The notes under the pieces are model-generated. The model was given only the letters and a program-made list of their open reading frames with translations. It made no database searches and was not told the DNA's origin. DNA of 64,000 nt from the NCBI GenBank assembly GCA_029204225.1, contig CM055092.1:22471669-22535668 (forward strand), in the 5' to 3' direction. The translations under genes were made by a program, and so were the position numbers. Below are positions 1,338 to 52,146 of the stretch, piece by piece (within the stretch, counting starts at the first letter, position 1; each line of letters opens with the position of its first letter). This stretch comes from Diphasiastrum complanatum (lineage: Eukaryota; Streptophyta; Lycopodiopsida; Lycopodiales; Lycopodiaceae).

Positions 1338-1879
1338 TTAGATTTTTTTTCTCATCCTATGTGGCAATTAATATAGAGTATTTTTCTAGTTTGAAACTCC
1401 TCTAATGCTAGGTCATTTCAATTTTCATCTGAGCCTATACATGTTGCCATAGTTGGGGTACTCAGGACTGAGTTAAAGTCATTTTTATCTTACTGGATCT
1501 CCTAAGAGATTTTGGTGGGTTGAACTTTTTTTTGTACCTTAGCTTTTGAAAAATTCTAAGTGTATTGGTACAAAGAAGCATTAATGACGGGTCTACAAGT
1601 AGTTGTGGATAGTCTTGGACTATAATTGTTTGGATCTTTAACTTTTGTACATTGATTTCCAATGTAAAGTGACATTTCACCCAAAGATTCATGTAAACTG
1701 AGGTTACATGAAGGTGGCGTTATAATTAGAGGAAATTTTGATGTCAAGAGGGCCCTTTCAAAAGATGCTTTTTATTTATTTTTCAACCTTTTAAGCTTTC
1801 TTTGGACCAATAGAAAAAGCACATGTGTACTTTTACGTTACGTAGAAAATCTGCCCAAAATTCTTGGGTAAATTTTTTT
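1338..1879. other. Gene-free spacer with a dispersed repeat
   Basis: No coding sequence is convincing here. The part from about 1720 to 1855 resembles 29837-29965: both carry ATTAGAG, AGGGCC, AAAAGATGCTTTTT, ACCAAT and an ACGTWACGTAGAA block in the same order. The match is imperfect (roughly two thirds identical by eye) and of unknown nature. Confidence 0.45.
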
Positions 1880-20549: not shown

Positions 20550-20564
20550 CTATTAATCTATTTT

Positions 20565-21998: not shown

Positions 21999-22584
21999 GT
22001 GTTTCAGGTTATGAAGGAGGAAATCAAATCTATCAATGATTTGGTGAAGATATCAAGTCTAGAGCATGCTAGAGAGGATTCTACACCAAAATCGGATTTT
22101 TTGCTTTTGTAGATTGGATCTTTTGTAGATCAAAACACTAAATAGGTCAATATACTTCTTCAATTCCGATTTTTGAATTCACATGCTGGATTTGGCCGAT
22201 TTTTGGATCATTGGTTCAGCCTAAGTGGTGGCTTATAGATTGCATATCAAATTTTTAGCATTTGCATGTAGATTTGGAATAGTCAATTTTTTGTGATTTT
22301 GTCAAAACCCTAATTTTGATTGGATCTCTAGATAGTGAGGATGCTAGAATTCATTTGAGTGTGTTTCAATCTTAGGAAGTGGCAAAAGTCATTAGATTGA
22401 GGATAGATCATAAGTTGATCAAGATTCCATAATTCTATGTGTTGATTTGCTTGGATAAGTGCTAGAAGAGAATTTGTGAGATAGTTTCAAATCTTGGTGA
22501 TTTCTTTTGAAAGCATTTGTTGTTGTTCAAAGGAGTGCTTTGTGCATTGAAACAGGTTGAAAGAGAATATCAGGTCATTGCTAC

Positions 22585-23550: not shown

Positions 23551-24121
23551 CAAGAGGGTGATCTACACGACCAATGATGGTGAGTGTGCAATCAAAGGGA
23601 TTGGCACAATTCCTATTTCTCTCTCTACAAATAGGAATGTTCATTTGGAGGATGTCTTGTTTATTCCATCTATTACCAAGAATTTGCTTAGTGTGAGTCA
23701 AATGCTAAGTAAGGGCCTCAAGGTGGAGTTTGATGGAGATGCTTGTTTGATCAAAAGGAAGGATGTCTTGATTGGAAAAGGTAAAAGGCAAGGGAAGTTG
23801 TTCAAACTTGATGCTTGTGTTATTGCTAACCAAGTTGGATGTGTTGCAAGGGAGCAAATTTCTATTGAAGAGGTTTGGCACAAAAGGATGGGAGACCTCA
23901 ACTTCAAGTCATTGGAGGTAATGGCAAGGAAGAAGGTTGCGATTGGTCTTCCAAGTTCCTTAAGTAATGACAAGCATGTTTGTGATCTTGTGCTTTGTCT
24001 AAGTCACATAGACTACCTTATACTAGATCTATTTCTAGATCTACAAAGCCTTTTCAACTTGTACATTCGGACATTAATGGATTTACTACAATTAGCAATA
24101 GTGGAGCTAAGATGTATGTAA
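23534..24121 (+). pseudogene. Element G1 protease end and pre-integrase
   Basis: The frame continues protease (ECAIKGIGTIPISLSTNRNVHL, NLLSVSQMLSKGL) and the pre-integrase region (VWHKRMGDLNFKSLEVM). At NDKHVCD it moves out of register: the following CxL-SKSHRLPYTR segment is in the -1 frame. G2 has the same shift at the same place, so the lesion or recoding site predates both insertions. Confidence 0.88.
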
Positions 24122-26133: not shown

Positions 26134-26144
26134 GAAAGCGAGTT

Positions 26145-26705
26145 TTGAGGTACATCATTGGAACTCGAGATTTTGGCATATTGTATGAGGGATCATCACC
26201 TAATCTTTTTGGATTTTCAGATTCGGACTATGCTAGAGATGTAATGGATAGGAAATACATTAGTTCTTATTGTATTTTCATAGGTGATGGAGCTATATCA
26301 TGGATGTCAAAGAAACAAGCCACTATCTCATTGTCATCTAGTGAGGCCGAGTACAAAGCTCTTACACATTGCACAAAGGAGATGGTATGGATCAAGAGGA
26401 TGATCAAGGATCTTCACTTGCTAGATTTTTCAGAGAGCCCAATCATCTTTTGTGACAATCAATCAGCCCAAAGAATGGCATCCAATCCTATCTTTCATGC
26501 TAGGAGCAAGCATATTGAGATACAATATCATTTTGTGAGGGAGCGAGTCATTGCAAAGGAGGTGGAGCTTCAACATGTGTCTTCAAGGGAATGTGTAGCT
26601 GATATCTTCACCAAAGCACTGGGAAAAGACTTGTTCATGAAGCATAGGACTTCACTTGGAGTATTATCAAAGTCTATGCTAAAACTAGTTGAAGAGGGAG
26701 TGTGA
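26145..26705 (+). pseudogene. Element G1 RNase H
   Basis: The frame begins in the RT/RNase H connection (HWKLGKRVLRYIIGT, just upstream at about 26113). It covers the whole RNase H domain: GFSDSDYARDVMDRK, LSSSEAEYKALTHC, IFCDNQSAQRMASNPIFHAR, KHIEIQYHFVRERV and ADIFTKALG. It is in a different frame from the integrase/insert ORF, so it would not be made as part of that polyprotein. It ends at the purine tract bordering the 3' LTR. Confidence 0.9.
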
Positions 26706-27334
26706 AAGATTCAACTAGTTTCATCACATTTTGCAATATTTCCATATTTGGCATATTGAGGCCAAAACTTGTCTTAGACTTAGAGGTTGACTTTTCAAAG
26801 TTCATTAGTCTAAATTTCATTTGAATAAACACTTTTTGAAATTGTGGGAAAGATAGAATGCGAGTTTGAGTAGATTCAATTTGAATAAGTTGGGTACATT
26901 GAATCTAGACCCAAAATTGGTAGGGTTAGCATTTTGGTGGGAAAGCCAAGTGGCCAAATAGGGTTTGGACCTGCTATAAAAGGATGTAACTCGTGGAGAG
27001 AGTCATCTTCTCTCTTCTCTATCTCATTTCATGCTTATACATGGTTCTCTTGGGTTCTACTATCCATTGGTGCACTATCTTGGTGATTGCTTGCAATTCT
27101 ATGTGTAGAATGATCTATATTTGCTATTTTTGGATCCACACTTGTGAAATACAGTAGCTTGTTGGTTTTGTACGGACAGCAACAGTACATAATCATTTCA
27201 TTCAAGTTTGATCAAGTTCTATTAGTGTTTGCATCTCAAATTGTGTGTAATTGCTGATTTTTCTACATTGGTGAAACTTTCTAACCAAAGATCATTCAAG
27301 TAGATTGGATCTTAAGGATCTGAAATCTTTCACA
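26701..27334 (+). repeat. Element G1 3' LTR
   Basis: It is a direct repeat of 21335-21984, missing about 16 bp near 27276 and with scattered substitutions. It is followed by the CTGGG target duplication and the resumed PPR frame. Confidence 0.95.
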
Positions 27335-27339
27335 CTGGG

Positions 27340-27764
27340 CTGATGTTGAGCTCTTTATCAACAAAATGCCAATTCAACCTGATAGTGTGGTTTGGATGAC
27401 TTTGCTGGGTGCTGCTAGAAACTATGGCCATGTGGAAATAGGAAGACGTGCCTTTGATCTTGTCGTGAAGTTGCAACCAAAGAATGCTGCACCTTATGTG
27501 CTCTTATCAAACATCTATGCAGCTGCTGGTAGGAAGGATGAGTTAGCAAAGATCAAAAATGAAATGAAGGATGCAGGTGCGAAAAAATTCTTGGGTGCAG
27601 CTGGATCGAAGTTGATAACCAAGTGCATGCCTTTGTTGTAGGTGATGCAACTCATCCACAAAGCAAGGAGATTCTGGCTGAACTGGATAGATTGGCAGGA
27701 TTGATGAAGGAGGCAGGGTATATACCTGATTTAAGCTAGTTCTTAACGATCAGCCCGACGATGA
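27340..27764 (+). pseudogene. PPR protein, PLS subfamily (3' part with E motifs)
   Basis: After removing element G1 and one CTGGG, the frame continues from LLARAGC into ADVELFINKMPIQPDSVVWM, LLGAARNYGHVEIGRRAFDL, NAAPYVLLSNIYAAAGR and, after a frameshift near 27590, a VDNQVHAFVVGDATHP segment and MKEAGYIPDLS. These are the E1/E2 motifs that close PLS proteins. A TAG follows, then VLNDQPDDEEEQEGL, similar to the start of a DYW domain (VLHDVEEEEKE type). No DYW deaminase follows; the sequence passes directly into the ParB-methyltransferase gene. Confidence 0.87.
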
Positions 27765-29867
27765 AGAGGAGCAAGAGGGCTTGGTCAAGGTTCTTGTCAA
27801 AGAGCTTGACAAAACTCGTTCAACATTCATTTTGGACGAAGGAATGCTGAAGATTCGACTTTGCCGAGATGAAACTGTTAAAACATATTTTGACAAAGCC
27901 CTTGTGACATTGGTAGGTACAATCAAAGAAGAATTTATAAATTTCTACCTAGATCATTAGGCTCGTTTGAAATGAAGTAGGTTTTGGACTATTTAGTACT
28001 ATAACAATTGTAAATTTCTATGCTGAGCATAGATTACATTATGATTATTTGAAGTTCTCTAATATTATTCTTCTGTTTTTTTGTCATATAGAGCCTCAGA
28101 CAATATCTACAAAACGTGCTCGATGCTGTTGTTGAGGGGAGGGATCTAATCTTTTCTTCCCGTGGTACAAAGTCAAGGGCTTTGGGACGTGGCAAAATAG
28201 CTTCTTCCACTGTCCCTTCCAACATTGATGGTACTGAAAAATCTGCACCCTCAGAATCAGCCCCTTTTTCAAAAAAAAGAAAGATCTTAGGCTCCTGTAC
28301 AAACCTAAGAGAGGATAGAGAAACCGAGGTCTAGAGACAAATCAATGGCCAAGCGACACAAAGTAGTTCCCTATGAAGAAAGTAGAAAAAAAATAGAAAA
28401 GTGTACTTTAGTTTTGCCTGGAGCCTCCATCCAACCTCTAAGAGATTCATCTGAGATCTCTAAACTTAGAGATGAAATTCATAAAATAAAAAAAATTAGA
28501 GAAACTACTTTGATTTTGGATATAGACCAGTGCGATCGTCCTCCCATTGATCCCTCCGACCAATGGAGGTTCGAGAGCCCAATGAAACACATGTACATAA
28601 CTTAAAAATCAAGCAATTGTGACACCTTTTGTTGTTTTGGTAGACCCTACTGAATGTTCATCTGTTGCCGATTTTAATTTTTCTTCTTTAGATAATTATC
28701 ATTTTTTTGTTTTGAGAGGCCTTTATAGTTTACAAGCTAGAAAACAACTGTCCCAGGAGTACTCCCATGTTGCTTCCTTCCGAACTGTTAGTGCCATTGT
28801 GTTTGCTGGGTTGACAGTGGAAGAAGCTAAACTTCTTGTTTGGGACCATAACATTGATGATGGTCATACAAAGGATTAGATTTTTTCACAAAGAATTTGT
28901 TAGTGTTTCCAAAGCTGAAGATTTTAACCGGTTGGTGCTGATAGCACTTTGTGCCCAAGAAACAGGCCTGCCATTTGACTCTAAGAATCCAATGCAGAGC
29001 CTAATTAAATATGATAATTTTTATCAGCATGCATTTCGCAGTGGCCAGGTAATTGCTTTGCTATGCTAAGCATAGAATGTTTAGTTCAAAAGGTTTTACC
29101 ATTAATAAATAAAATTTACAAAGCTTTTAATATTTTGTCTTTGCAATATTATTTTTCAAGTTTGGGCGCTTGTGGATAAAATTTTTGAAAAGTGGAAATT
29201 TTTTGAAGTTGTTGCCACCACTCACACATTAAAACCCATACCAACAGAGATGGTATTTTTGAGTGGAAATGGGCAAGCAATTTCAGAGGTCAATTTTTTT
29301 TTTATGTTTTAAATAACAATTTTTAATAGTAATTGCAAGTTTTGTTATTTTTTTTTATATTGATCATTAATTTGTTTTTTAATACAAGCATAAATTATTC
29401 ATGAAAGTTCAAGAGGCCCTAGTAACAAGGTTCTATAATGATCTTGAGGAGTGCTAGAGGCTTTATCCTCTGAGCAGTAAAAATGAAGCTCTCACTCTCT
29501 TTTTTTAAATTATTTAGAGATATGGTATTCACTTTACTCATGCTTCGCATAGAAATATATAATTAATTTTCTATTTTAAACATTCATATCTTATGCTAAG
29601 CATAGTAATCATATTCTCTTTGCTAGGATCTCAAGCCTAGCATAGATTTAATTTACTAATTATTTATTATGTTCATCCTTACCTTTCTTAAAATCGAATT
29701 TTTTTTAATTATTTCTTTTGTACATCTTATGCAAAGGTATATTTGCATTCTCTCTTCTTTCAGTCGGCTGAAGACAAGAAAAATAGTTCTTCCAGGGCAA
29801 TTTAAACGACATTCTTAAAGCGAAGACAAAAAAACATTAGAGAAACTTAGAGCCCGACGAGGGCCTT
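27765..29867 (+). pseudogene. ParB-like domain half of a ParB-methyltransferase gene
   Basis: Coding blocks with splice-like borders: about 27765-27911 (donor GTAGGT), 28094-29048 (donor GTAATT), 29161-29288, 29389-29456 and 29764-29867. The second block (frames shifting near 28300, 28610 and 28870) contains NYHFFVLRGLYSLQARKQL followed by a charged loop, then VSAIVFAGLTVEEAKLLVWD and HNID. This order resembles the ParB/sulfiredoxin fold (G-x-x-R-L-A-A helix, VP-x-x-V, LSDEEAxxLAxxEN). A later block has VWALVDKIFEKWKFFEVVAT. In phages and bacteria ParB-like domains occur fused to N4/N6 DNA methyltransferases, which is what lies beyond the 13.9-kb insertion at 43794. Stops and frameshifts show decay. 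The ParB assignment is by eye and moderate. Confidence 0.55.
28018..29605. repeat. Intron palindromes, set 1
   Basis: The 15-bp palindrome CTATGCTNAGCATAG occurs at 28018-28032 and 29061-29075. Close variants occur at 29539-29552 and 29591-29605, and a half copy near 29630. All lie in introns of the ParB half. The same palindrome recurs in the methyltransferase half at 44247 and 44297, and I saw it nowhere else in the window. Confidence 0.8.
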
Positions 29868-30315
29868 TGAAAAAGATGCTTTTTTATTTTTTTTCTTATT
29901 TTCATTGCCATATGTACCAATTGAAACCTTAGCTTCGGGGTTATACGTAACGTAGAATTTTCCATATATAAATAAACTAAAAACTTTTTAAATATATTGC
30001 TATTTCGTCGGGCAACATGTGGAAATGCTATTGGTTGATGAGTCCTGTCCTTCCAGCTCATCACTGTCCGAAGAGACCCAAAAATATTGAAAATGAATCT
30101 GACAGATGGTTGAGAAGAGAAAATCGATGTACCGTTAATGTATATGCATTGTCAAACCATGGTTAATAGGGATAACCAGAGTTAATTTGTGGTGCCAAAT
30201 AGATCAGTGTTTCAAATTTTCGCCAACACTTTTTTTTTTCAGATTCATGGCTTTTTGTCTACGCAAATTTTCAGATTCATAGTTCATTGTTTCAGATTTT
30301 TGCATGCAAATTACG

Positions 30316-31290
30316 AATGGCACCATCAAGGAAGCCGTGCTCCTCAATCGACTCTGTGCTTCTATTCAACGAGACAGATGATAATGGATTATGGGTGCCA
30401 AGAAAATATTCAAAAAACTCTTGGATTTTGATGCATCCATCATCAAGAGGATCGTTTCGAAAAAGGAAAAGGTCAAAACTATCATTTCGATCTTATCGGA
30501 AGGCCAAAATTTTGGATTTCAGAACATCATCAGGAGGAAAATCTATTTCTGAAATTCTAGTCCAACATGTATATATGCATTCAGAGATAAATGTGCAAGG
30601 ATTCAACCGTCAGGATCACAAAAAAAACAATTGTGAGTATTGATATTTTTGATACTTTGATTTTTGTCATTCATAAATATCTAATAGTAAAGTTGCCAAT
30701 TTGATTATTTTTCTCTTACAGATTTATATCCATCCAACATAAATGAATGGGAGCCGAGTGGATTTTTAACAAGTGTGTTAGATGTTATTTACACTGATAT
30801 TGGACAGTTGTATTATCGAGGTAGAACTGCAAAAGATCTAGTTGATAGTGGAATCTTTGTTTATGAATCAATGTACATTCCTGATACAAAAGGAAATTTT
30901 GGACAAATAGTTCCAATTCCATTACCTAGTTTTGAAAGTGATGAATGGATTGCACCAGCTGCTATAGTTTCGGAATCATTTCATTGCAAGATATATAATG
31001 ATGTAAAAAATTCATTAAAAATGAGCACGAGATAAAAAAAACAGTCAGATTGAGTTGGTTTATTTCCTTGAATATATTTGTGGATTTCTTTTCAAGTGTC
31101 AATGTTCACAAAACCCCAACGATGTTTGTATGCAAAAATTTATCAGATAGTTTATTATCTGTACTTATGGATGAAGGCTGGGACAAAAGATCAAATGGAG
31201 AAATAGAATGCAGAATTAAAATGTCTTCCATGTGCTTCCATTATCAAATTGAAAGACAAATGTTAAGCTTATGCTTCCATTATCAAAGAT
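30316..31290 (+). pseudogene. Gene A, unknown protein
   Basis: The ATG at 30316 opens a basic N-terminus (MAPSRKPCSSIDSVLLFNET, then RKRKRSKLSFRSYRK). Exon 1 ends at 30632 with a GTGAGT donor. Exon 2 starts at 30722 after a TTACAG acceptor, with phase kept, and reads INEWEPSGFLTSVLDVIYTD, YYRGRTAKDLVDSGIFVYES and EWIAPAAIVSESFHCKIYND. It stops at 31033. A +1/-1 shift near an A-run then gives VRLSWFISLNIFVDFFSS and LMDEGWDKRSNGEIECRI. Further in-frame pieces (KGKWMPLDQDLEASGHSKR) reach about 31430. I do not recognise a domain. It lies near the left end of the block and converges on the Ulp1-like gene. Confidence 0.6.
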
Positions 31291-31983
31291 GAAAAAAAAA
31301 TAAAGGTAAATGGATGCCACTCGATCAAGACTTGGAAGCTAGTGGACATTCAAAACGAAAAAATATTGAAATGATATACAATGATGCCGTTTTGACATGT
31401 GTTAGGTGGAAGAAAATTGGAGTCTAAACTATATCCGACGAGAACTATTGCTCCTACAAGATGATGTACTTTCGGACTTCAGATTCATTTTCAATGGTAA
31501 ACTCGTAAGTAACTGTAAACACTCGATTTTTTATGAATAGTTTCAATCAAAACTTTCTAATACAATTTCTCTACTAATTCTAACTAGCTTTGTATTAGTT
31601 TTATGCAGGTACGTAAAAGACATGAGCTCGAGATCAAATGCAGAGATATTGGCGAAACAATCCAACTTATGGAAGAACATTGAGATTCACTATCAGCAAA
31701 TACATGTCAATCATCATGTCTTTTTATCATTATAGAAAAATTGCATTCCATTATTAGACTATGGACACAAGCTGATTGTAAGAATCTATTGTGATATCAA
31801 TAAAAAAAACCCATAAACGGGTTGTTTACAAGTAAAATGATTGTATCTTTTTTTTTTATGTCTCTCTATTTACAAATAGATCTCTATTCAATCAATTTTT
31901 CTATATTTTCTATATCAGTATTAGGAACTGATAAAGCAAAAGCTCCTTCTATAATCTCCCCCTCCTTTGTTTCGAGAAGGGCC

Positions 31984-33021
31984 TCAATGCCTTTTAAGAC
32001 GATGAATATCTGCTACAAAGTTGCCTTCCTCTGTATTAGGAAGGACTTTTATTCCTTTTTGATCATATAAAATAAGATCTGCATCCTGAACAACCTGAAA
32101 GGCTGTTAAGGCAGGAGCAGATTCCTTTTGAGGGCCCTCGATTGCGGGTGCAACGCTTACACCGTACTGGGCAAAGGTTCTGATCAACTCTTGCCGAAAT
32201 CTATATACATCATCAGGAGTATACGGCTCAAGAGTGAACTGTCATCACAAAACACGAGAATCAGCAAATTACAAACAATGATAGTAATAAAATATCAATC
32301 AGAATGAAATGAACTACAAATGAATAGAATATTACCTTTTCAATATCTACATCCGTTTGTAAATTATACCATTCAAAAAATAACTTTGTATTGTACAGGA
32401 CGAACCATGCACAACTAAAAGCGTCATTCTGCTGTACACACTGCATATAGAGAACGAAAATTAGTAATATTATGATAGAAATTTTATTTATGCTATGATG
32501 ATACATTTGATTTAAAAAAAGAAATACATGCATATCAGAGATAAATTGTATATACCTTCAGAGATTTGATGGTTATATCTCCAATTGAAGTTGCCATTGT
32601 CGGTATTTCCCGAACGACATCATGAAGTAGAGAATCAAATTCTCTATGTGTATTTGTAGTTGAGTTTAATTTTACACATAGAAAATTTGATACTCCCTAC
32701 TTATTTATCTTTACAAAAGAATGTTTAGGCTCCAATGCCGACTGCAACAACCACAAGATACAAATATCGATAAACTCATATTTATGAAAAAATTCCGTTC
32801 TTATTAACGCAATGAGGCATGCAACAATCCATAATAAAGCAACAAAAACAAAAGAGCAATCCTTACTTATTTTCATATGGAATCAAATAGAATTTCGCCA
32901 TAGGACTGCACTCAATAAAATAGACAGTCTTCTCAAAATTGGCTTCTTTCGCCTTTACCGCTCCTATGAAAAATGGACTAACTACAAAAGCTGTACCATG
33001 GAAATCAAAACTAATACTATT
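31984..33021 (-). pseudogene. Ulp1/C48-like cysteine protease
   Basis: The family cleaves SUMO or SUMO-like/viral polyproteins. Minus-strand exons: 33021-32867 (VYFIECSPMAKFYLIPYENK, donor GTAAGG); from 32741 (N-RHWSLNILL, with the catalytic His-Trp at 32732-32737), then after a frameshift THREFDSLLHDVV, with the Asp-Ser-Leu that carries the catalytic Asp in the family, donor GTATAT near 32555; 32440-32336 (CVQQNDAFSCAWFVLYNTKL, with the oxyanion Gln and catalytic Cys); and 32238-31984 (FTLEPYTPDDVYRFRQELI to the stop). Three splice junctions keep phase. His, Asp, Gln and Cys occur in the correct C48 order. A stop/frameshift around 32705 damages it. It lies directly downstream of the H3-like frame on the same strand and may be part of the same transcript or protein. 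Confidence 0.72.
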
Positions 33022-33157
33022 CTGCAAAAATGAAACACCGGCCTCTACTTATCTTTAAGCTCGGCACAAAATTTAGGATCTAATCTAAAGCTTCTACATG
33101 TATCTAGAAGAAAAAAAAATCAAAAAAGTTGCCGAGAAGATCAATTTTGTTAGCTAG

Positions 33158-33970
33158 CTAGGCCTCATATTGATTATAATGGTCAGAATAAAAAAAAACC
33201 TGGGCTGGATCATATGGAATTCTCACAAAAAGATTATGTACAAGAGGGGCAGAAAGAGAATTCGAAACAATATTTACATATTTCTCTGTTATTTTGTCTA
33301 GCTCCTCTTGGGTAATCAACAATTTTGGTGATGAAACCTGTTGAGGAGCTAGACGAATAACAGGAGGAGGACTGGGTGAAGATTCTCGATCTGAGTCAGA
33401 TCCTCCAGCATCTGACTCAGAGCTCAGAATGACATGGGGTCTTTTGGTCGGGATACGTCTAGGAGGAAGGGAAGCAGCTGGCCTTCGAGATCCAGCCTTT
33501 TTGGGAACAACCTGCTTTCTCTTCCTCCTAGAGGTAGTAGGCACGTCGCTTCTATCCAGAGGCAGGTCTCTGGAGGTGCTGGCATTATCTACACGCAGAC
33601 TTGAATATCTATCCTGAAACCTTTTGAGAATGACGAAATCCTTTGGCATGATGGTGACACGCTTACCATGCACTGCCAAAAGACAAGTATCCTCAAAAGA
33701 CTGGGACAAAAAATCTTCTGCAGCACCTTGCAAGGCCTGCATGGCTGTCACGACAAAACGAACATCAAGCCCAAGTAACAGAGTGACATTTTGGACAGAT
33801 CAGCCGAAAGGAGCTCTAGGGATCAACAATTCGATTGATCTCTGAAGTTTTATGATCTCCGTAAGCCATACCTGCTTCCTGCCACGCCTACGGCCAGTAC
33901 CAGCGGGAACATGAGAATGGAATGGTTGTATAGTGGTGATGGCATGGGCGGTGGATTTAGTTCTGGCCAT
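33158..33970 (-). pseudogene. Histone H3-like protein with long C-terminal extension
   Basis: The minus-strand ATG at 33970 starts MARTKSTAHA, matching the H3 ARTK N-terminus. The tail is short (about 33 residues, lacking the K9 and K27 ARKS contexts). The histone fold follows: VWLTEIIKLQRSIELLIPRAPF (helix N/1 side; compare VALREIRKYQKSTELLI), a single TGA at 33800-33802, LDVRFVVTAMQALQGAAEDF (helix 2) and VHGKRVTIMPKD. The stop sits where H3 has Arg (LPFQR), so a CGA-to-TGA transition is likely. LLIPxAxF and AAEDFL are closer to centromeric H3 than to canonical H3. About 150 extra residues follow: basic RRKRK and KKAG patches, an acidic Ser-Asp stretch and Pro-rich segments. The fold call is firm; the biological role is unknown. 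Confidence 0.85.
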
Positions 33971-35390
33971 CATTCTCGGAAGAAGAAAATTAACAAAAAG
34001 AAGTTTGAAATAAACAAAAGTGGATCAGAACAAAAAAATTTGCGACAAAAGGGCGCTTGAGATCGATACTAGCACTGAATATCGGTTTCGAGCACAAGAT
34101 CTACAGAGATTACATGCAGAAAGGAGATGTGCGCTCGAAAGCGATATTGCACAGCAGGCGGTATCGGACTCAAGCGCACTGTGAGAGAGTGGAAGCTTGA
34201 AGGATGAAAGAGCGTGCTTGAGAGCGATATCGGAAGCTAAAAGCGAAAATTTTGCGAAAAAAAATGAAAATTTCAAGGGCTTATATATACGAAATTTTTG
34301 CACGTGTGAAAAGATGGCCGAGACACATGTCGTCAGATAATTAGACCACGTGGAATGTCTGTACTGATTATGATATACCAATTATGAGCCCACGTGGGCT
34401 GAGACACGTGCACGAATCCCGGATCGACGCATGTCATTCTTGCACGTGACAGATGTCAGATCCATCCTTTTAGGTATGATGCATTTAGTCGACACATGTT
34501 CCTTCGTCACTTTTCCACACGTGCGAAATAATTTTTATAAATAGATCTTTTTGGGCGTGGATTCTCACGCAAATTCACGATTGCTTTGCCGGATATCGAT
34601 TTTAAGCGCGCCGCTTGCTCTCATTACAACTCGTTGGCTATTATGCGCCTGGATCCGATACTGCATCTTCCGATATCGCATTCAAGCGTGTCTCACATAC
34701 CTTTTCTTTTCTGGTCGTTGTTCTTGCGCTCGGATCCGATACTCCAACTTCAAAAATCTCTCTCGAGCACACGTTGATTGGACGTGCTTGTCGGACCAGG
34801 GGTTTGCGCGTGAGAGCAATATCTTTGTTTAAAACGTCTAATTTGGAATCCAGTTTGCTTTTTTGTTTTATTGTATTTTCAAGACACATGTCGTTTGATG
34901 ATTAGTCCACGTGGAATGTCCGTACTGACAATGATGACCAAATTATAAGGACACGTGGGCTGTGACACCTGCGCGAATCCCTTGATGATGTGTGTCATTC
35001 TCGCACGTGACAAATGTCAGATCAATCATTCAAGGTACGATGCATTTATTTTGGCCAATCACATGTCGACACAGGTTCCTTCGAATATCGATTTCAAGCG
35101 CGCTGATTGCTCTCATTACGTCTCGTTGACTATTATGCGTCTGGATCCAATACTGCATCCTCCGGTATCGCATTCAAATGCGTTTCGTATCCCTTTTTTT
35201 CTCTGCTCGTTGTTCTTGCACTCGGATCCGATACTCCAGCTTCCAATATCTCTTTCGAGTGCACGTTGCATGGACTTGCTTGTCTGACCTGGTGTTTGTG
35301 CCTTAGGGCGATGTTTGGAACTTCAGTTTTGTTATTTTTGTTTAAAACGTCTAATTTTGAATCCAGTTTGGTTTCTTTTTTTTAATGAAT
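33971..35390. promoter_or_regulatory. Divergent promoter with inverted and tandem duplication
   Basis: Nine CACGTG motifs fall between about 34301 and 35007. Minus promoter: CACACGTGC then TATATATAAGC (TATA near 34281-34290), leading to the H3-like gene. Plus promoter: CACACGTGC at 34516-34524 then TATAAATAG at 34536-34544, leading toward gene C. The two are inverted copies, and the transcribed leaders on both sides share TTCCGATATCGC-TTCAAGC-type words. A tandem copy of the plus arm starts at 34882, about 560 bp after 34321 (shared AGACACATGTCGT). ORFs in this stretch have no protein features and follow the duplicated DNA. CACGTG is the plant G-box; binding here is inference. Confidence 0.7.
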
Positions 35391-36887
35391 TTGGTATTAC
35401 TGATAGGTTGGACTATTTCAAATCTCTTTTTTCTCCTTTTCTTTTTATTCTACCTTCTACAACTGAGGGCCCTGGTGTGGAGGCATTTTCTGAGAAATAT
35501 CTCAGATTTAAGTCCCTGCTCAGTACTCCGTTATTAAGGTATCAGAATAAAGACATGATTCATTATCAGGACTGGGTGGCACTCGACAAGCATATCTATA
35601 AAGCTAAGCTTGACAGAATGTTTACCAAGTTACATAATGATTTCAAGTCTGTAGATGAGTGCCCAATTCATAATAAATAATGTAGATTTGTTGATTTTCA
35701 GTCTGCTTTTGTTTTTTTCTTTTTTCTTTTGTTAAATATTTCTAATGATTTGGACTCTGTGCCCTCCACTTCTGAAGTAGCTTCTTCTAGTGGTACAAAG
35801 TCTGAAAAGTCAAAGATTGTAGATATAGAAACCTTTTTTATTGATACGAGTGTTAATTTAGATGATTGTTCTGATTTTGATCCTGTTCGAAATAGGTCTA
35901 CCTTTATAGGCCCTAGAACACCCACCATCCTTTCTCCTTCTAATAAATGTTTGATCACTTTGCCTACTTATAATATAGATAATAATTCCTTTTTGACAAT
36001 ATCGGATATATCGGATCTTTTTTACTTCATTGAAGCTGAGACTCTTTGCATTTTGAACAAAGAGCTTGATGAATTTTTGGATATTATTGATTTTGATGTT
36101 GATGATCTTCTCCCTGGTGTTGACGATGTACATAATGATGGGTTTTTTTGGGGAAAGATTGCTTGAAAATGGCTGTGGAGGAAATGCGCAATAAAGAAGA
36201 CGATCTGCCTTCCAAGGAGGAGTTTTTTAGAATCCAAAGTCAACTTGGATTTCCACAACCATCTGTCTATTCACCAGCAATATTGACATCGAAAGGTGGA
36301 CATAATATTGATGGTGAGACAGTAATCAGAAAAGACAAAGCCGAATGCGTAAGTTTTTGTCTCTTATCAAGTACTAGTAGATTATTTATGTCAAATTAAA
36401 TCACTGAGTTTACTTTATTTCTTATCATTTCAGAAAACAATTTTCCTTTATGATTTCGCAATTCGTCAAGGAGGGCAAAGATCTTCTGTGGGAGAATTTT
36501 CAAGAGATCATGCACTCGGGCACTATCTAAAGTCCTTCAAGAATAATGAGATAAGTGTTGCCCATTCAAAGTTTCATCAACATGGTGAAACTATAATTAT
36601 GACAATCAAGGCACTATCTCATTTTCTTGGAGGACATAATTTTAATAAGGTGCATAAAATAATTTTTGTAAAGAAAACTATTGCGCTTAAAATTTTAGGA
36701 TATGGACCAGTGAATTCCATGCTTAGATTATCTCATTTTGCAGTATTACGTTGATCTTAATAAGCATGAAAACTATGAGCTATTGGATCCATACGAAAGA
36801 AGAAAACTGTTGCATGATTTTAAGTTGCAACTTTCATTTGAAAAAATATCGGAAGCAGATTATATACTGCTGAATTGTACATTTTAG
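35391..36887 (+). pseudogene. Gene C, unknown spliced protein
   Basis: A plus-strand frame reads LRFKSLLSTPLLRYQNKDMI and HYQDWVALDKHIYKAKLDRM to a TAA at 35678. It reopens in the same frame as LNISNDLDSVPSTSEVASSS, then a Ser/Asp-rich acidic region (LDEFLDIIDFDVDDLLPGVD). A 7-T run near 36143 shifts the frame into MAVEEMRNKEDDLPSKEEFF and QLGFPQPSVYSPAI. Exon ends: 36351 (GTAAGT), 36434-36648 (TIFLYDFAIRQGGQRSSVGE, GHYLKSFKNNEISVAHSKFH) and about 36744-36887 (YYVDLNKHENYELLDPYERR to a stop). Junction phases agree. I recognise no family. The acidic middle could be a protein-interaction or activation region. Two lesions make it a probable pseudogene. Confidence 0.6.
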
Positions 36888-37031
36888 ATATTTTTCTTTA
36901 ATATACAAAATTTTATTGTGTGTCTATAGCCTATTGGCTTGTATAAATTTGCATGCTTTTTGAAATTTTTTATAATCCGTTGATTTTGAATTATGACGAA
37001 TTTGGATTCTTTTGTAAAACCATTGGAAAAG

Positions 37032-37193
37032 TTACAATATATAGTTGTTTTTGGTGCTAGTCCCGCCATGTTGTGTACTTTTATGAAATGATGCTCTTGC
37101 TTGCCAATGAGATTTTTCCATTCCTTGCGATGACCATATGCTAAGACTTTCACTATTTCTTGCAAAGAATGTCGAATGATGTCGTAATATGTG
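37032..37193 (-). CDS. Gene D, terminal exon
   Basis: After an acceptor (ATGCAG) the minus strand reads HILRHHSTFFARNSESLSIW and SSQGMEKSHWQARASFHKST, then QHGGTSTKNNYIL and a stop. The phase matches the donor at the end of exon 2 (42406), so this is the probable last exon, separated from it by element G2 sitting in the intron. The GMEKSHWxARxxFHKxTQHGG stretch is compact and His/Trp-rich and looks like a conserved domain end. I cannot name it. Confidence 0.5.
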   Translation of the reverse strand, partial: HILRHHSTFFARNSESLSIWSSQGMEKSHWQARASFHKSTQHGGTSTKNNYIL

Positions 37194-37240
37194 CTGCATG
37201 TCATAAAAACACAATCTAAATCAGTACCAAAGGTATCTAA

Positions 37241-37890
37241 TGTGAAAGATTTCAGATCCTTAAGATCCAATCTACTTGAATGATCTTTGGTTAGAAAGAG
37301 AAATACACTACCAATTTTACCAATGTAGAAAAATCAGCATCTACACACAATTTGAGATGCAAACACTAATAGAACTTGATCAAACTTGAATGAAATGATT
37401 ATGTACTGTTGCTGTCCATACAAAACCAACAAGCTACTGTATTTCACACGTGTGGATCCAAAAATAGCAAATATAGATCATTCTACACATATAATTGCAA
37501 GCAATCACCAAGATAGTGCACCAATGGATAGTAGAACCCAAGAGAACCATGTATAAGCATGAAATGAGATAGAGAAGAGAGAATATGACTCTCTCCACGA
37601 GTTACATCCTTTTATAGCAGGTCCAAACCCTATTTAGCCACTTGGCTTTCCCACCAAAATGCTAACCCTATCAATTTTGGGTCTAGATTCAATGTACCCA
37701 ACTTATTCAAATTGAATCTACTCAAACTCGCATTCTATCTTTCCCACACTTTCAAAAAGTGTTTATTCAGATGAAATTTAGACTAATGAACTTTGAAAAG
37801 TCAACCTCTAAGTCTAAAACAAGTTTTGGCCTCAATATGCCAAATATGGAAATATTGCAAAATGTGATGAAACTAGTTGAATCTTTCACA
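37241..37890 (-). repeat. Element G2 3' LTR
   Basis: A 650-bp LTR with the same TGTGAAAGAT/ATCTTTCACA ends as G1. The CTCCCTCTTCAAC sequence on its right is the complement of the element's purine tract. Confidence 0.94.
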
Positions 37891-38455
37891 CTCCCTCTTC
37901 AACTAGTTTTAGCATAGACTTTGATAATACTCCAAGTGAAGTCCTATGCTTCATGAACAAGTCTTTTCCCAGTGCTTTGGTGAAGATATCAGCTACACAT
38001 TCCCTTGAAGACACATGTTGAAGCTCCACCTCCTTTGCAATGACTCGCTCCCTCACAAAATGATATTGTATCTCAATATGCTTGCTCCTAGCATGAAAGA
38101 TATGATTGGATGCCATTCTTTGGGCTGATTTATTGTCACAAAATATGATTGGGCTCTCTGAAAAATCCAGCAAGTGAAGATCCTTGATCATCCTCTTGAT
38201 CCATACCATCTCCTTTGTGCAATGTGTAAGAGCTTTGTACTCGGCCTCACTAGATGACAATGAGATAGTGGCTTGTTTCTTTGACATCCATGATATAGCT
38301 CCATCACCTATGAAAATACAATAAGAACTAATGGATTTCCTATCCATTACATCTCCAGCATAGTCCGAATCTGAAAATCCAAAAAGATTAGGTGATGATC
38401 CCTCATACAATATGTCAAAATCTCGAGTTCCAATGATGTACCTCAAAACTCGCAT
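37886..38455 (-). pseudogene. Element G2 RNase H
   Basis: It is colinear with the G1 RNase H, reading MRVLRYIIGTRDFDILYEGS and GFSDSDYAGDVMDRKSISSY to ADIFTKALG. YAGD is the family consensus where G1 has YARD. The frame is open throughout and, as in G1, differs from that of the integrase/insert ORF. Confidence 0.9.
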
Positions 38456-38457
38456 TC

Positions 38458-40596
38458 CTAGCTTCCAATGCTCCTAGCATAGTTTTTGCCAATAGAACTT
38501 TGATCCATCATAAGAATGATCTTCTTCCTAAGAATAGATATCCTTTCAATGATCATGTAATGCTCAAAATAGAAACAACCATAATTGATATAGAGAATAG
38601 TGTCCACTTGGGATGCTTCACTATTTCTTACATCAATTTTACATGTAAAATTGTGACTAGAACATGAAGAATCAAATAGAATGTAAATGAAATGATTCCA
38701 CCATGCTTCCAGCTCTGAACTCTCTGGAAACATACAGCAAACAAACAATAAATGTGAGTGATCAACTTTTGCTTGCATGTCTCCTCCTTCTTTGTCCTTT
38801 GTTGCCTTGTATCCACCATGATACTCCATGAATGAGCCTCCATCTTCATCTTGCCACAAGAAACCATCAAACCTTGGAAATCCATGAGTAGGTGAGTACA
38901 TAAATGATGCAAATCCAGCACCACATGACTCCATAAACCAAGTAGTTTGCACTAGTCCATCTTCAAGATCTACTTGACACAAGAAAATGACCATAAATTC
39001 ACCAAAAATTGACAATCTCCAAGTATTGGCACCAAGTAGCTCAACACTTGAGAACTTAGCCATGGATGAGTGACATAATGAACCTCCAATAGCTTCATTT
39101 CCATCAGCAAAATCAGCCAAGAATGCTAGTACAAATCCAACATCAAAACAATGCTCACCAATGTAGCTAGTTTTGCCATATCTTGACAATTTGCACACAT
39201 CCACATGAAATTGCTCAAACATGAGATAGAACAAGTAAAGTAAACTTGAACAACACTTCCTTGCTGCTCCTTTGACCTTACTTGAGTCTTCAATATGCTG
39301 TAAAAACAGATCCATAACACCTTTGCCAATTACCTCTCCTTTCATGCTCTTGACTAGCTCCAAATTGCCAACTTCCCTTTTGACTAGTTGAAGCGCTTTG
39401 AGATCAACATCTTGATCTTCAACTTGACCATCAAAGTCATTGAACAAAATCTGTTTTCCAGATCCATTACTTGATTTTACAACAAAATAACATCCATTCA
39501 CTTGCATAACTCCATGTACACAAGAAGATCCTCCAAAAGATGTTCCACTCTTTATAAGAGATCGATACTCAAGATCCATTGCTTGGATCCACTCCTCTTC
39601 TTTCCTTGCTTGATCTACACTTGTAGGCTCATCCAAAGAGGTTAGGAAAGCAACATAATTTCTAGAAACTACTTGCTTACCCTTTTGATCATATGTGAGC
39701 CTTGAAGGTACTTGTCTTTCTCTTGATGTTCTCCTTGGCTTTTGACTTGATGAAGGTCCATCATCACCACCATCCAAAGTAGGATCCTTCTCATCAACAT
39801 CAAGAATGTTAGAACCATCTACTTTACCATCAATCATGCTTGAAGACACCTTTGTAATGTTTCCCTCATCAAAAATGACATCTCTACCAACAATCACTTT
39901 GTTAGTAGAAGGAATGTAAACCTTGTAGGCTTTACTCACCTCACTATAACCAACAAAAATACCTCTTCTTGAAGATGGATCCTCCTTGGTCCTATCATCA
40001 AGAGTAATGTTGACATAGCATGTGCATCCAAAGGTTCTTAGAAAGTTGACACTCGGCCTCCTCTTGAATAGCATCTCAAAAGGTGTCCTTCCATCCAAAA
40101 TAGCACTCGGCCACCTATTGCACAAGAAATTGGCACACAACAAAGCTTGATCCCAAAATGGTTTGTCAAGATTAGCACTTAACCTCATAGCTTTAGCACT
40201 TTCACATAAAGCTCTATTCTTCCTTTCAGCCACTCCATTTTGTTGTGGGGTCCTTGATGTTGTATACTCCCTCTTGATCCCATGCTCATCACAAAAGGCC
40301 TTGAACTTGTTAGATATGTACTCACCACCATTGTCACCTCTCAAGCACTTGATCTTTGTGGAAAATTGGTTCTCCCTTGCATTCTTGAACTTGACAAAGA
40401 CATCATACACTTCATCCTTGCTCTTTAGTAGATAGATCCAACAAAATCTACAAAAATCATCAATGAATGTTACATACATCTTAGCTCCACTATTTCTAAT
40501 TGTAGTAAATCCATGAATGTCCGAATGTACAAGTTGAAAAGGCTTTGTAGATATAGAAATAGATCTAGTATAAGGTAGTCTATGTGACTTAGACAA
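38458..40596 (-). pseudogene. Element G2 integrase fused to the non-RT insert
   Basis: It has the same 712-codon layout as G1. The integrase part keeps FIDDFCRFCWIYLL, LRGDNGGEYISNKF and PQQNGVAERKNRALCE. The insert (about 38470-39540) keeps its frame over the whole length, with scattered amino-acid differences from G1, for example FGGSSCVHGVMQVNG for FGRPSCVHGAMQVDG. Again no RT motif is found. Retention of the open frame in two copies implies either young age or use of the product. Confidence 0.85.
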
Positions 40597-41198
40597 AGCA
40601 CAAGATCACAAACATGCTTGTCATTACGTAAGGAACTTGGAAGACCAATCACAACCTTCTTCCTTGCCATTACCTCCAATGACTTGAAGTTGAGGTCTCC
40701 CATCCTTTTGTGCCAAACCTCTTCAATAGAAATTTGCTCCCTTGCAACACATCCAACTTGGTTAGCAATAACACAAGCATCAAGTTTGAACAACTTCCCT
40801 TGTCTTTTACCTTTTCCAATCAACACATCCTTCCTTTTGATCAAACAAGCATCTCCATCAAACTCCACCTTGAGGCCCTTACTTAGCATTTGACTCACAC
40901 TAAGCAAATTCTTGGTAATAGATGGAATAAACAAGACATCCTGCAAATGAACATTCCTATTTGTAGAGAGAGAAATAGGAATTGTGCCAATCTCTTTGAT
41001 TGCACACTCACCATCATTGGCCGTGTAGATCACCCTCTTGTCATCTCCATATGCCAACAAAGAAGTGAAGTACTCTTTGTGAAAGGTCATGTGTGAACTT
41101 GCTCCACTATCAATCCACCAAGGATATAGATCTCCATCATTAGCAAGCATACATGAAGACATCACAAAAGCATCATCATTTGCATCTTGCACATCCAA
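40470..41198 (-). pseudogene. Element G2 protease and pre-integrase
   Basis: The protease is complete here (WWIDSGASSHMTFHKEYFTS), showing that the 17-bp gap in G1 is a private deletion. The frame runs into VWHKRMGDLNFKSLEVM and shows the same -1 shift after NDKHVCD as G1. Confidence 0.88.
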
Positions 41199-41258
41199 AC
41201 CATCCTCATCAAGAGTAAGATTACCTTGCTTGTCTCCTTGATCTCTCTTCTTCTTGTA

Positions 41259-42021
41259 TCACTCACTTGCAAAGTGTCCTTTGATGCCACAATAGAAGCA
41301 CTTGAGCTTTGATCTATCCTTCTTTTTGCCACTTGAAGAAGCATCCACTTGATCTTGCCCTTTAGAGCACTTTCTTTTGGTTTTGCCCTTGAACCTGCCC
41401 TTTGCGAACATAGCATCCTCTTGAAGTGTTGATGTAGATCCACCTCTTGCTTGAAGCCTATATTCCTCATTGATCAAGATCTCTTGAAGATCCATCAAAC
41501 TTGGCAAAGTCTTTTGAAGACAATACTTTGAACAATGTTAGCATGAGCATCCAACAAGCCATTAAGAATCACTTGAATAAGCTTCCTTCCTTAATGCTTT
41601 CATCTATGCAAGCTAACTCATCATTCAATTCTTTCATTCTCAAAACAAAAGTACTTGGACTTTCTTCATTCTTTTGCAAACAAGAAAAAATTTGCCTTCT
41701 TAGAGTCAACACTCTAGAAGTAGACTTGGATTCATAAAGCTTCTTCAATGAATTCCAGGCTTCCAAAGATGATGTGCACTTACCAACTTCCTTGAGAAGT
41801 TCATTGGTAACATTCATCTTTATCATGTGTAGAGCCTTCTTGGACCTCTTGTCATACCTCAATTGATCTTGTTGTGTTGCTGGTCTCTCCTCCAAACCTA
41901 CAACAATATCCAAAACATCATTCATCTCAAGAAGTGACTCCATCCTCACTTTCCATAATGAATAGCTACTTGAGGTAAGCCTATCATTGGCTTCCAACAT
42001 GACTCTAATTGAGGTTGCCAT
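41259..42021 (-). pseudogene. Element G2 gag
   Basis: It begins at 42021 with MATSIRVMLEANDRLTSSSY and matches G1 gag. A frameshift lies at about 41510-41575 (FK for the IQVILNGLL region), and a stop follows HFASE in the knuckle CFYCGIKGHFASEC at about 41262. Gag is therefore damaged in this copy though intact in G1. Confidence 0.88.
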
Positions 42022-42405
42022 GTAGCAATGACCTGATCTTCTCTTTCAACCTGTTTCAATGCACAAAGCACTCCTTTGAACAACAACAATTGTTTCAAAA
42101 GAAATCACCAAGATTTGAAACTATCTCACAAATTCTCTTCTAGCACTTATCCAAGCAAATCAACACATAGAATCATGGAATCTTGATCAACCTATGATCT
42201 ATCCTCAATCTAATGACTTTTGCCACTTCCTAAGATTGAAACACACTCAAATGAAGTCCAGCAACCTCACTATCTAGAGATCCAATCAAGATTAGGATTT
42301 TGACAAAATCACAAAAAATTGACTATTCCAAATCTACATGTAACATGTCCCTTTTTTTTTTTAAAGATGAAATGGTCGTGGGATTGAAAACTTTTTAATA
42401 TTTAC

Positions 42406-42670
42406 CTGTGCAAGTGTCTCATTTATCATCTTAAACATTGTTGCATATGCTTCCCTACTGATGCTAGAAAAGTCACATGTCCCTTGAAGCAATGTAGTGT
42501 CTAATATTTTTTCAACTTCATCCATAATGCTATCAGTAACTGAAGCCTTAATTTTTTTCATTTTGTTATTATTTAACATTGATTTCATAGATTTAAAAGT
42601 CAAGATAGAGCCTAGTGAGTTTTCAATTGAAATCTCATCAGCCAAATGGTCTTCAACAACCAATGCTGAT
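42406..42670 (-). CDS. Gene D, exon 2
   Basis: It is bounded by an acceptor (AATGCAG) at 42671 and a good donor (CAG|GTAAAT) at 42405. It reads SALVVEDHLADEISIENSLG, then KKIKASVTDSIMDEVEKILD and AYATMFKMINETLAQ. The codon split with exon 1 restores a Lys. It is mostly helical with no recognised domain. The following intron contains element G2. Confidence 0.6.
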
Positions 42671-42831
42671 CTGCATTGCAAACATAATGTTTATGAAAAT
42701 GTCAGTAGAAATTAGGACACTCATAGTATTCACAACAGTATATAATAAAAATGAATAAATAACAAAATTAGTGATTATAAATAAATAAAAAAACTCAAAC
42801 AATTTTCAGTACCAAATAAGCTATAACTTAC

Positions 42832-43457
42832 TTGAATGTACGGATTCGTCTTTTTCTATGACCTCCTCTGGATGATAGATCACATATATCCTTGTTTACC
42901 AGTCTTTTTCTCTTGTTGCTTTGGACCTTTCTGTTGAGCACATCCATATCTTTAACAAGAGACAAATATGAGATATGCATGGATTGAAATGCAATTTTTA
43001 TCTCATCATTACTAGTTGTATAATGATACAAAGAAGATTTCAACCTTTGGATCTCCTCTTTGAGCATCTCATTTTCATCCAAACAAGTTTTTATCTTTGT
43101 AGATTTTTCTTCACACTCTTTTGATATTTTTCTTGATTCCTCTTCCAAATAATGTATTCTTTGCATTGAATGTGCATTCCCATAGAGCATCAAATTCTCA
43201 CAGTAACCCAAAAGGCCATTTTTACCATGACACATATAGATTATTAACTGACTCACGGAATGAAAATCTGGATGTTGCAATAAACATGGATCAATAGGAT
43301 ACAATGTTCCTGATGACCATAAATCTACATGCTTTAGCTTTTCCTCTCTGTGTCGGACCATATCAGAAGTTGACAATTTGAATTGCTTTGAATTTCTTGT
43401 CCTGAGCAAAGCATATTCTGGTGACAGATCCACATGAAGATGATAAAGCTTTTTCAT
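42832..43457 (-). CDS. Gene D, exon 1: coiled-coil protein
   Basis: The ATG at 43457 begins MKKLYHLHVDLSPEYALLRT. A region with LYPIDPCLLQHPDFHSVSQL follows, then a coiled coil (about residues 95-145, heptad-like LEEESRKISKECEEKSTKIK and ENEMLKEEIQRLKSSL), and a basic C-terminal end (SNKRKRLV, GGHRKRRIRTFK). The donor CAA|GTAAGT is at 42832. It is the only gene in the block with no internal stop or frameshift in its three exons (about 350 residues in total). It starts 340 bp inside the right end of the block. Structural or DNA-binding roles are possible; I recognise no family. Confidence 0.62.
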
Positions 43458-43793
43458 CAGTACAGTAGTATAGTAACAAACAACACAATGACAATAACAA
43501 AACTGGAGATGGCGCTAACGACTCTGCTGGAGATAGAGATGGCGTAGACTTTCTTCGGAAATGTCATTCCTAATTCAAATTTTTTAGTGTTCCCAACTAT
43601 TGGGAGAGAATATTTCAGCGTTTTGAAAAATTATATTTTAACTGTGGTTAAACACCAGTGAAGTTTGATGTGACTAAACTAAAGTGCATTCATTTACATG
43701 GAAAGTAGTGCGGGCAAATGCGTAAAGAAGTTAGAAAATGATATTATAATTATTTTATAGTTATTTTTCTCTCTCCTACATGACATTTCTTAT

Positions 43794-45023
43794 AGGGCCT
43801 TCTTTGGGCCCATATTTTCTCTAATGAGAGACAGAGAAAGATTGGCACGGAGTGAGACTATTGTCGAGAAGGATTCAACAGAGACTTTCCTCCCAAGTGT
43901 CGATGATCAACCGTGTTTTTATATTGTGGAAGAAGGAGATTGTAGGGAGATTTCAAAATTTTCAAAGAAAAAACCCTACACTATTTGCATAGCAGACATA
44001 TCCTTCAAAGAATCTCTAAATGATGATTCTCCATTCAAATTCACTGAGATCCATAGTGTGATGCAAGGATTTCTTGAAATCACAACTTCTCCTATTTGGA
44101 GAGTTGTAATATTCCATTCAAGTTGGCAGTCGGCTTCAGTGCAAAAAGCTCTTCTAACTTTTTGCAATATTGGGATTGAAAATGCTATATGGTATGTCTT
44201 TAACTTTCTTAAAACTCAATTTTATTTGTTTTGATTTTTAAATATTCTATGCTTAGCATAGATCATTGTTTAAAATAATATTTTACTTTTAATCTTCTAT
44301 GCTTAGCATAGTATAGATAATTGTTTAAACTAATAATTTACTTTTTTTTTTGTAGGTACAAGCCTAGTGTTTGCAATGCTCGTGGTGCACGGTTGTGCAA
44401 CGAGATTGAATACATAAACATTGGTTATTATTCATTGGATGATGCTGCACTATAACACCATCGGACTGACTAGCTTTGGGAACTTGTTCCAATTTTCAGC
44501 AGTAACAAAGAAACTGAAAAATCCAATGACAGGTTCTGTGGCTTATCCTTATCAAAAACCACAACAATTAACTAGTCTTGTTGAAATTTTTTCACACCCA
44601 GCAAATTGGGTTTTAGATTTGTTTAGTGGTAGCGGCACTACAAGCGCATGCGTTGTGCAAAAAGACAGACATGTTGCTGTTGTAGAATTAGATTCTAGCT
44701 TGGTAGAATTTATAAGAATACGAATGAAGTCTATTTCAGTTTTGCCAGATGAATTAACTGAGATAGGAAGGTCTACAGAATCTGACGAAGACTCTATAAT
44801 TTCGCCGTCGAAAGAACCACAACCTTCCGCTAGTGGGAAAGTGAGTGACACATGGGAGTTTGCAAATGTACTAATTCAAGATTATAATGTTATAACTGTA
44901 GAAGAAACCGTCGAAGAGGTTGCCATAGTTTCTATTGAGACTGGACCTCCAGAAAAGCGCAAAGATGTCAATGAGCTTGATGACTATGAATATCAAACTT
45001 TTTTGACGTCACGAAGTTTTTAA
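43794..45023 (+). pseudogene. N4/N6-type DNA methyltransferase half of the ParB-methyltransferase gene
   Basis: Beta-class amino-methyltransferases place the catalytic (D/S)PPY motif before the SAM-binding FxGxG motif. Exon 43794-44191 has YTICIADISF at the motif IV position, so PP is replaced by IS, then WRVVIFHSSWQ and FCNIGIENAIW. After an intron (GTATGT...TGTAG, 44192-44355) it reads YKPSVCNARGARLCNEIEY, matching the IWxKP...EYI segment. A second short intron (44424-44499) or a frameshift follows, then GSVAYPYQKPQQLTSLVEIF, the SAM loop VLDLFSGSGTTSACVV and motif II VAVVELDSSL. An acidic tail ends at 45023. Family membership is clear. Catalysis is doubtful because motif IV is altered. In plants such a domain is unexpected; transfer from a phage or bacterium, possibly via a mobile element, is inference. 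Confidence 0.82.
44247..44311. repeat. Intron palindromes, set 2
   Basis: CTATGCTTAGCATAG occurs twice, at 44247-44261 and 44297-44311, inside a 50-bp tandem duplication in the methyltransferase intron. It is identical in form to the palindromes in the ParB-half introns. Confidence 0.85.

Positions 45024-51608: not shown

Positions 51609-52146
<538 letters not shown>

What the first reader, a model, noticed from the sequence alone, without database searches (positions are those of the whole stretch)
29860..43801. A 13.9-kb four-gene block flanked by an 8-bp direct repeat inside a DNA-methyltransferase gene
Seen: AGGGCCTT occurs at 29860-29867 and 43794-43801. Counting codons from the acceptor at 29763 and back from the methyltransferase frame, both copies fall in the same phase (Arg-Ala-Phe). 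Excising the block plus one repeat joins ParB-side and methyltransferase-side coding sequence in frame. Inside are four units in +, -, +, - order, with the outer two starting about 450 and 340 bp from the ends. Known: 8-bp target duplications are made by hAT, P and Zisupton-type DNA transposons. Inference: this is a large, apparently undescribed transposon with a histone H3-like protein and an Ulp1-like protease among its cargo.
Basis: partly seen in the sequence, partly recalled or inferred. Interest (0 to 1): 0.88.

Follow-up and report, generated by a model that had tools for sequence, protein, structure and literature searches.

The report
Histone-protease gene cluster in plant DNA
In a transposon-riddled stretch of what looks like a land-plant genome, a decayed DNA-methyltransferase gene seems to be split by a block of four genes, one of which appears to join a histone H3 to a SUMO-protease-like domain; the 8-base repeat taken as a transposon footprint is close to what chance gives.

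Summary
AGGGCCTT is at 29860 and 43794, but it is weak as a target duplication. It is one of 12 eight-base words shared by the two end regions, and about 6% of random pairs of stretches share one as GC-rich. No inverted repeats were found at these ends, none of 102 ORFs in the block matches a transposase, and a 64%-identical sequence elsewhere in the window runs through the left junction. "In frame" holds only as arithmetic: that frame has two stops, and the host gene shows apparent frame breaks in both halves. That left and right are one interrupted gene is supported separately: all five exact copies of a rare palindrome lie in its halves. "ParB" has no profile support. What stands out is the second gene: an H3 histone fold (Pfam 2.5e-18) with a long extension, then downstream exons resembling Ulp1/SUMO protease (C48, 5e-4, just under cut-off), probably one gene. 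Its tail keeps ARTK but lacks K9. I suggest a degraded copy of a multi-gene mobile element with a chromatin-directed deSUMOylase, working like plant VANC/KIU anti-silencing genes. The genome search did not complete, so no second copy could be sought.

The parts
29860..29867 (+). left copy of AGGGCCTT
   Evidence: not significant as a target duplication
43794..43801 (+). right copy of AGGGCCTT
43797..45020 (+). right half: N6_N4_Mtase-like C-terminal half (SAM motif DLFSGSGTT), intron 44192-44355, apparent frame break near 44450
   Evidence: Pfam PF01555 E 1.7e-10 for the ORF 44418-45020, 3.6e-11 for a bridged model; RsrI methylase 7.4e-5
28020..28030 (.). palindrome ATGCTNAGCAT; further exact copies at 29063, 29593, 44249, 44299 (5 of 5 in the two gene halves)
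30317..31683 (+). unit 1: spliced gene of unknown family (first intron 30633-30721); probable frameshift near 31013; 3' part read by eye
   Evidence: no Pfam match
33200..33970 (-). unit 2 exon 1: MARTK... H3 histone fold plus ~140-aa basic/acidic extension; in-frame TGA at 33800-33802 at a position where H3 has Arg
   Evidence: Pfam Histone 2.5e-18 for the typed model; PDB H3 5.9e-17, 41 of 84 identical
31987..33021 (-). unit 2 downstream exons: Ulp1/C48-like protease (HWSLNIL ... QQNDAFSC); a break between about 32714 and 32690 is unresolved
   Evidence: Pfam Peptidase_C48 5.2e-4, 20.3 bits vs cut-off 20.7, on a bridged model; Ulp1 1euv E 0.5, HW and QQ....C in register
34321..35298 (.). two-copy tandem duplication between the divergent starts of units 2 and 3 (83-84% identical pieces)
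35395..36886 (+). unit 3: the part 36169-36886 is an open spliced gene (introns 36349-36433, 36650-36743); upstream part uncertain; unknown family
37241..42347 (-). 5'-truncated copia retrotransposon, 97% to the one at 21335-27334; lacks the 5' LTR; no Pfam reverse-transcriptase match in the ORFs scanned
42405..43457 (-). unit 4: first two exons of a coiled-coil gene of unknown family, apparently cut short by the copia element
1725..1847 (+). sequence similar to 29836-29957 through the left junction

Best explanation
A methyltransferase-related gene of a plant, now decayed, is interrupted by roughly 8.8 kb of foreign multi-gene DNA, itself later hit by a copia retrotransposon. The inserted block is most likely a degraded or fragmentary copy of a mobile element (or virus-like element) whose termini are not yet defined; the 8-bp repeat probably is not its footprint. 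Its second gene encodes a histone H3 fold fused to a Ulp1-type (SUMO) protease. Proposed action (inferred): the H3 part, which keeps the ARTK start and the H3 core but has no Lys-9 site, lets the protein enter chromatin or pair with H4, and the protease removes SUMO from chromatin silencing factors nearby, keeping the element expressed. This copy is broken by a stop in the histone and probably by a break in the protease. Shown: the sequences, domain matches, stops and statistics. Inferred: that the four units form one element, the fusion (splice sites only, no transcript), mobility, and function.
For: One interrupted gene: 5 of 5 palindrome copies in the two halves. The block is gene-rich: its second-longest ORF, 213 aa, exceeds the maximum of 200 Markov shuffles, 149. 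H3: Pfam 2.5e-18 and 64.5 bits to solved H3. Fusion: exon 1 runs past the histone fold to 33200 in the same frame, then GT-AG introns of 178 and 125 nt lead to NNRHWSLNIL; a further exon carries QQNDAFSC; both align with Ulp1 at what I recall as its catalytic His and Gln/Cys. Tail: MARTKSTAHAITT lacks K9 by direct reading (H3 numbering recalled). Precedent: plant Vandal/KIU elements carry VANC anti-silencing genes with a captured Ulp1 domain (PMC13317346, passages read).
Against: No second copy, termini, transposase or transcript. The C48 score is slightly below the curated cut-off and comes from a model that bridges an unresolved break; no single block ORF matched C48 at E<=0.1; the PDB Ulp1 match is not significant alone (E 0.5); the catalytic Asp is not identified. 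The single-sequence structure model failed (mean pLDDT 39.5). The four units could be unrelated neighbours brought together by separate events. Ulp1's role in KIU elements is itself unknown.
Confidence: 0.4

Rival explanations
1. One reading: one 13.9-kb transposon (8.8 kb without the copia) bounded exactly by the AGGGCCTT target duplication inside the methyltransferase coding exon.
For: Exact 8-bp repeat in the same codon phase; the block lies between two halves of probably one gene.
Against: A repeat of this quality is found in about 6% of random pairs; no terminal inverted repeats; no transposase found; the left junction is crossed by similarity to 1725-1847; the frame is closed by two stops.
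Confidence: 0.15
2. All of about 27.8-45 kb is one larger element or viral remnant in which the left gene, units 1-4 and the methyltransferase are neighbouring genes; nothing was inserted into the methyltransferase gene.
For: The PPR reading seems to stop near 27780 where the left gene begins (direct reading). Related methyltransferase families exist in phages (9 PHROGs families at E<=1; but only 1 of 50,697 phage records matched).
Against: The palindrome occurs in the two gene halves and not in units 1-4. Viral-contig scans with three pieces, which reach close relatives only, found none.
Confidence: 0.2
3. The four units are ordinary host genes and pseudogenes (including a degraded H3 duplicate next to a Ulp1 pseudogene) brought together by rearrangement in a transposon-rich region.
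For: The region is decayed and full of nested copia; units 1, 3 and 4 have no family; lesions are present in units 1 and 2.
Against: The histone reading frame continues about 140 aa beyond the fold into GT-AG-linked protease exons in the same direction; several ORFs of the block exceed all shuffles at their rank.
Confidence: 0.25

Closest known systems
VANC / KIU (Kaonashi) genes of Vandal and other non-TIR MULE transposons of plants
   Same: multi-gene plant elements, lacking clear inverted ends in many cases, with a Ulp1-type domain joined to a protein that acts on chromatin state (PMC13317346, passages; PMC6446971, passages)
   Different: no MULE transposase or VANC-like domain found here; the partner domain is a histone H3 fold; MULE duplications are 8-11 bp, VANDAL 9 bp where given, and here none is established
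hAT, P and Zisupton/KDZ transposons (8-bp duplications; recalled)
   Same: an 8-bp direct repeat at the proposed ends
   Different: repeat not significant, no inverted ends, no transposase found
Histone H3 / CENH3
   Same: H3 core, 41 of 84 identical to a solved H3; LIPRAPF recalls CENH3 (from memory, not tested)
   Different: tail shorter and without K9; long C-terminal extension and protease; the core aligns to H3 without a gap, so loop 1 has H3 length
Ulp1/SENP SUMO proteases (C48)
   Same: HW ... QQxxxxxC pattern in register with yeast Ulp1
   Different: Ulp1's DCG is SCA; catalytic Asp not located; score just below the Pfam cut-off

Membership tests
DNA transposon with 8-bp target duplication (hAT/P/Zisupton) | target duplication beyond chance | tested here: not met
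   6.35% of random pairs share a word this GC-rich, 98% share some 8-mer
DNA transposon with 8-bp target duplication (hAT/P/Zisupton) | terminal inverted repeats | tested here: not met
   7 of 20 at the proposed ends; score 25 vs null 95% point 33
DNA transposon with 8-bp target duplication (hAT/P/Zisupton) | transposase | tested here: inconclusive
   0 of 102 ORFs match a transposase in Pfam, but exons are short and unit 4 is truncated
DNA transposon with 8-bp target duplication (hAT/P/Zisupton) | several copies with shared ends | not testable with these tools
   The genome search unanswered in 14 requests (last)
Non-TIR MULE (VANDAL/KIU) | MURA/MULE transposase | tested here: inconclusive
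   none among 102 ORFs; could be split over short exons or lost beside the copia
Non-TIR MULE (VANDAL/KIU) | Ulp1 domain (KIU) | tested here: inconclusive
   Pfam C48 20.3 bits vs 20.7
Histone H3 | H3 histone fold | tested here: met
   by sequence: Pfam 2.5e-18, PDB 5.9e-17; structure model uninformative
Ulp1 (C48) protease | His-Asp-Gln-Cys active site (recalled) | tested here: inconclusive
   His and Gln/Cys align with Ulp1; Asp not located because of an unresolved break
N6_N4 DNA methyltransferase (beta class) | SAM motif and catalytic DPPY-like motif | tested here: inconclusive
   SAM half matches; the place where I would expect the catalytic motif (recalled) reads ADISF
ParB | ParB domain profile | tested here: not met
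   no match of the typed left-half models in Pfam, NCBIfam, PHROGs; the gene is broken, so a miss is not proof

The most novel reading that the evidence does not exclude
A plant mobile element encodes a decoy histone: an H3 variant that cannot carry K9 methylation, fused to a SUMO protease. Deposited in the element's own chromatin, it would erase SUMO-dependent silencing there, a self-targeting anti-silencing factor built on a histone.
Probability: 0.12. Interest if true: 0.88.

Novelty: new variant of a known kind. Interest (0 to 1): 0.45.

Why it matters
Plant transposons have captured Ulp1 domains, and what these do there is unknown (PMC13317346, passages). A histone-Ulp1 fusion would give a concrete clue, deSUMOylation aimed at chromatin, and a testable new kind of anti-silencing protein. 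If only the repeat argument were at stake, the finding would be ordinary.

Tried and rejected
Tried without result: genome search for other copies (14 identical requests, none answered); protein database (switched off); viral contigs with the methyltransferase, H3-extension and unit-4 pieces (none); prokaryote genomes with the methyltransferase and H3-extension pieces (none); plasmids with 26700-37700 (none); phages with the H3-extension piece (none) and the methyltransferase (one weak match); Rfam (none at gathering threshold; one sub-threshold snoRNA hit at 29863-29942, E 0.56, taken as chance); tRNAs (none); structure of the histone exon (too poor to search, so no fold search was made).

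Considered and rejected: that the right repeat abuts a splice acceptor (TTTCTTATAG|GG), so that the border lies in an intron. A small acceptor matrix puts it at only the 65th percentile of 1450 AGs, against the 80th to 99th for the 12 acceptors used (chosen by eye, each left out in turn). CENH3 rather than H3: the core aligns with H3 without a gap.

My first spliced coordinates for units 1 and 3, the first unit 2 donor and the methyltransferase intron were off by a few bases; searches give the corrected ones.

Literature: ten searches. In the listings I saw (20 of 522, 15 of 15, 0, 0, 0, 12 of 22, 12 of 26, 0, 10 of 24 and 3 of 3 papers, titles and starts of abstracts) none describes a histone-Ulp1 fusion or a plant transposon carrying H3. 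The library is open-access only, four lists were capped, and I read only passages of two papers (PMC13317346; PMC6446971), so this is weak evidence of novelty.

Full report
Setting. The window looks like a land-plant genome: a PPR gene (Pfam E_motif 1.9e-17 at 27324-27638) and many nested Ty1/copia elements. The species was not identified. A full-length copia at 21335-27334 sits in the PPR gene with a clear 5-bp duplication, CTGGG, and joining its flanks restores an open PPR frame. This is what a clean insertion looks like 2.5 kb from the block.

The repeat. AGGGCCTT is at 29860 and 43794, in the same codon phase. The regions compared share 9 eight-mers (431 x 341 bp) or 12 (553 x 345 bp). Of 2000 random pairs, 98% share at least one and 6.35% one with 5 or more G/C. 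For 100 x 100 bp pairs the latter falls to 0.3%, so the repeat would matter if the ends were known beforehand, which they are not. Inner ends match at 7 of 20 positions. It is only 64%. It beats 300 Markov shuffles (79 against at most 70), but 8 of at most 300 random pairs of window stretches scored as high or higher, probably true repeats; its nature is unknown.

The interrupted gene. From the acceptor at 29763 the frame meets TAA at 29803 and TAG at 29848. The reading of the left half switches frame near 28600 and 28870, that of the right half near 44450; without a homologue these are apparent frame breaks. The right half is an N6_N4 methyltransferase C-terminal half. The left half has no family match, so 'ParB' is unproven. 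That both belong together rests on the palindrome ATGCTNAGCAT: 5 exact copies in 64 kb, all in non-coding parts of the two halves, none in the block. A looser pattern adds one copy in the left half (29540) and two elsewhere (6307, 57001). The motif was noticed by eye before counting, so the count is post hoc. If the two halves were one gene, the block is an insertion, with borders somewhere in 29764-30316 and 43458-43796.

The block. Unit 1 (+), unit 2 (-), unit 3 (+) and unit 4 (-) are spliced, gene-like sequences. Among 102 stop-to-stop ORFs of 42 aa or more in the block, the histone-fold matches stand out; the other weak hits (best 0.003, coiled coil) name no transposase. The longest ORF, 228 aa, lies above the 95% point (179) but below the maximum (272) of 200 shuffles. 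The second, 213 aa, exceeds the maximum at its rank, 149.

Unit 2. Exon 1 (33970 to 33200, minus strand) starts MARTK, holds an H3 fold (Pfam 2.5e-18; 41 of 84 identical to a solved H3), continues about 140 aa, and has one TGA at 33800. GT-AG introns of 178 and 125 nt lead to NNRHWSLNIL. A further exon carries QQNDAFSC, which aligns with Ulp1's Gln/Cys box in a match not significant by itself (E 0.5). Between these two lies a break that I could resolve only as a frameshift plus stop or as a 70-nt intron; neither is proven. The C48 match is 20.3 bits against a cut-off of 20.7 and was obtained on a model bridging that break. So the fusion is likely, not shown.

Working hypothesis. In plants, Ulp1 domains captured by non-TIR MULEs occur in VANC-type anti-silencing genes, with unknown Ulp1 function (PMC13317346, passages). 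A histone-Ulp1 protein would place the protease in chromatin. The tail keeps ARTK but reads H-A-I where H3 has R-K-S at 8-10 (direct reading; H3 sequence and numbering recalled). This is inference from one broken copy.

Limits. No homologue of units 1, 3 or 4, no second copy and no transcript were available; the decisive search did not complete 14 times.

Noticed in passing
21335-27334 and 37241-42347: Two copia elements 97% alike keep gag (found in the second copy), integrase and what looks like RNase H (recalled motif; no Pfam match), but the six ORFs scanned (two and four) show no reverse-transcriptase match; the place between holds an open frame of no known family shared by both copies. 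They may be a non-autonomous lineage that spread without its own reverse transcriptase.
   Followed up: partly
37241-42347: The second copia lacks its 5' LTR and about 925 bp of its 5' end, and I saw no target duplication; its broken end lies close to a run of A on its own strand.
   Followed up: no
28020, 29063, 29593, 44249, 44299: A palindrome CTATGCTNAGCATAG (or near) recurs in non-coding parts and introns of the methyltransferase-related gene; its 11-bp core has no other exact copy in the window. Nature unknown.
   Followed up: partly
20550-21334 and 27335-27780: The PPR gene is split by a copia with duplication CTGGG, has a further apparent frame break near 27590, and a pattern search found no DYW-type motif after it.
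   Followed up: partly
1725-1847: Sequence resembling the left junction of the block, beside what looks like the LTR of a nested copia; could be an end of an undescribed repeat.
   Followed up: partly
51713-51911: Perfect short-period tandem repeat, with related sequence at 57100-57511.
   Followed up: no
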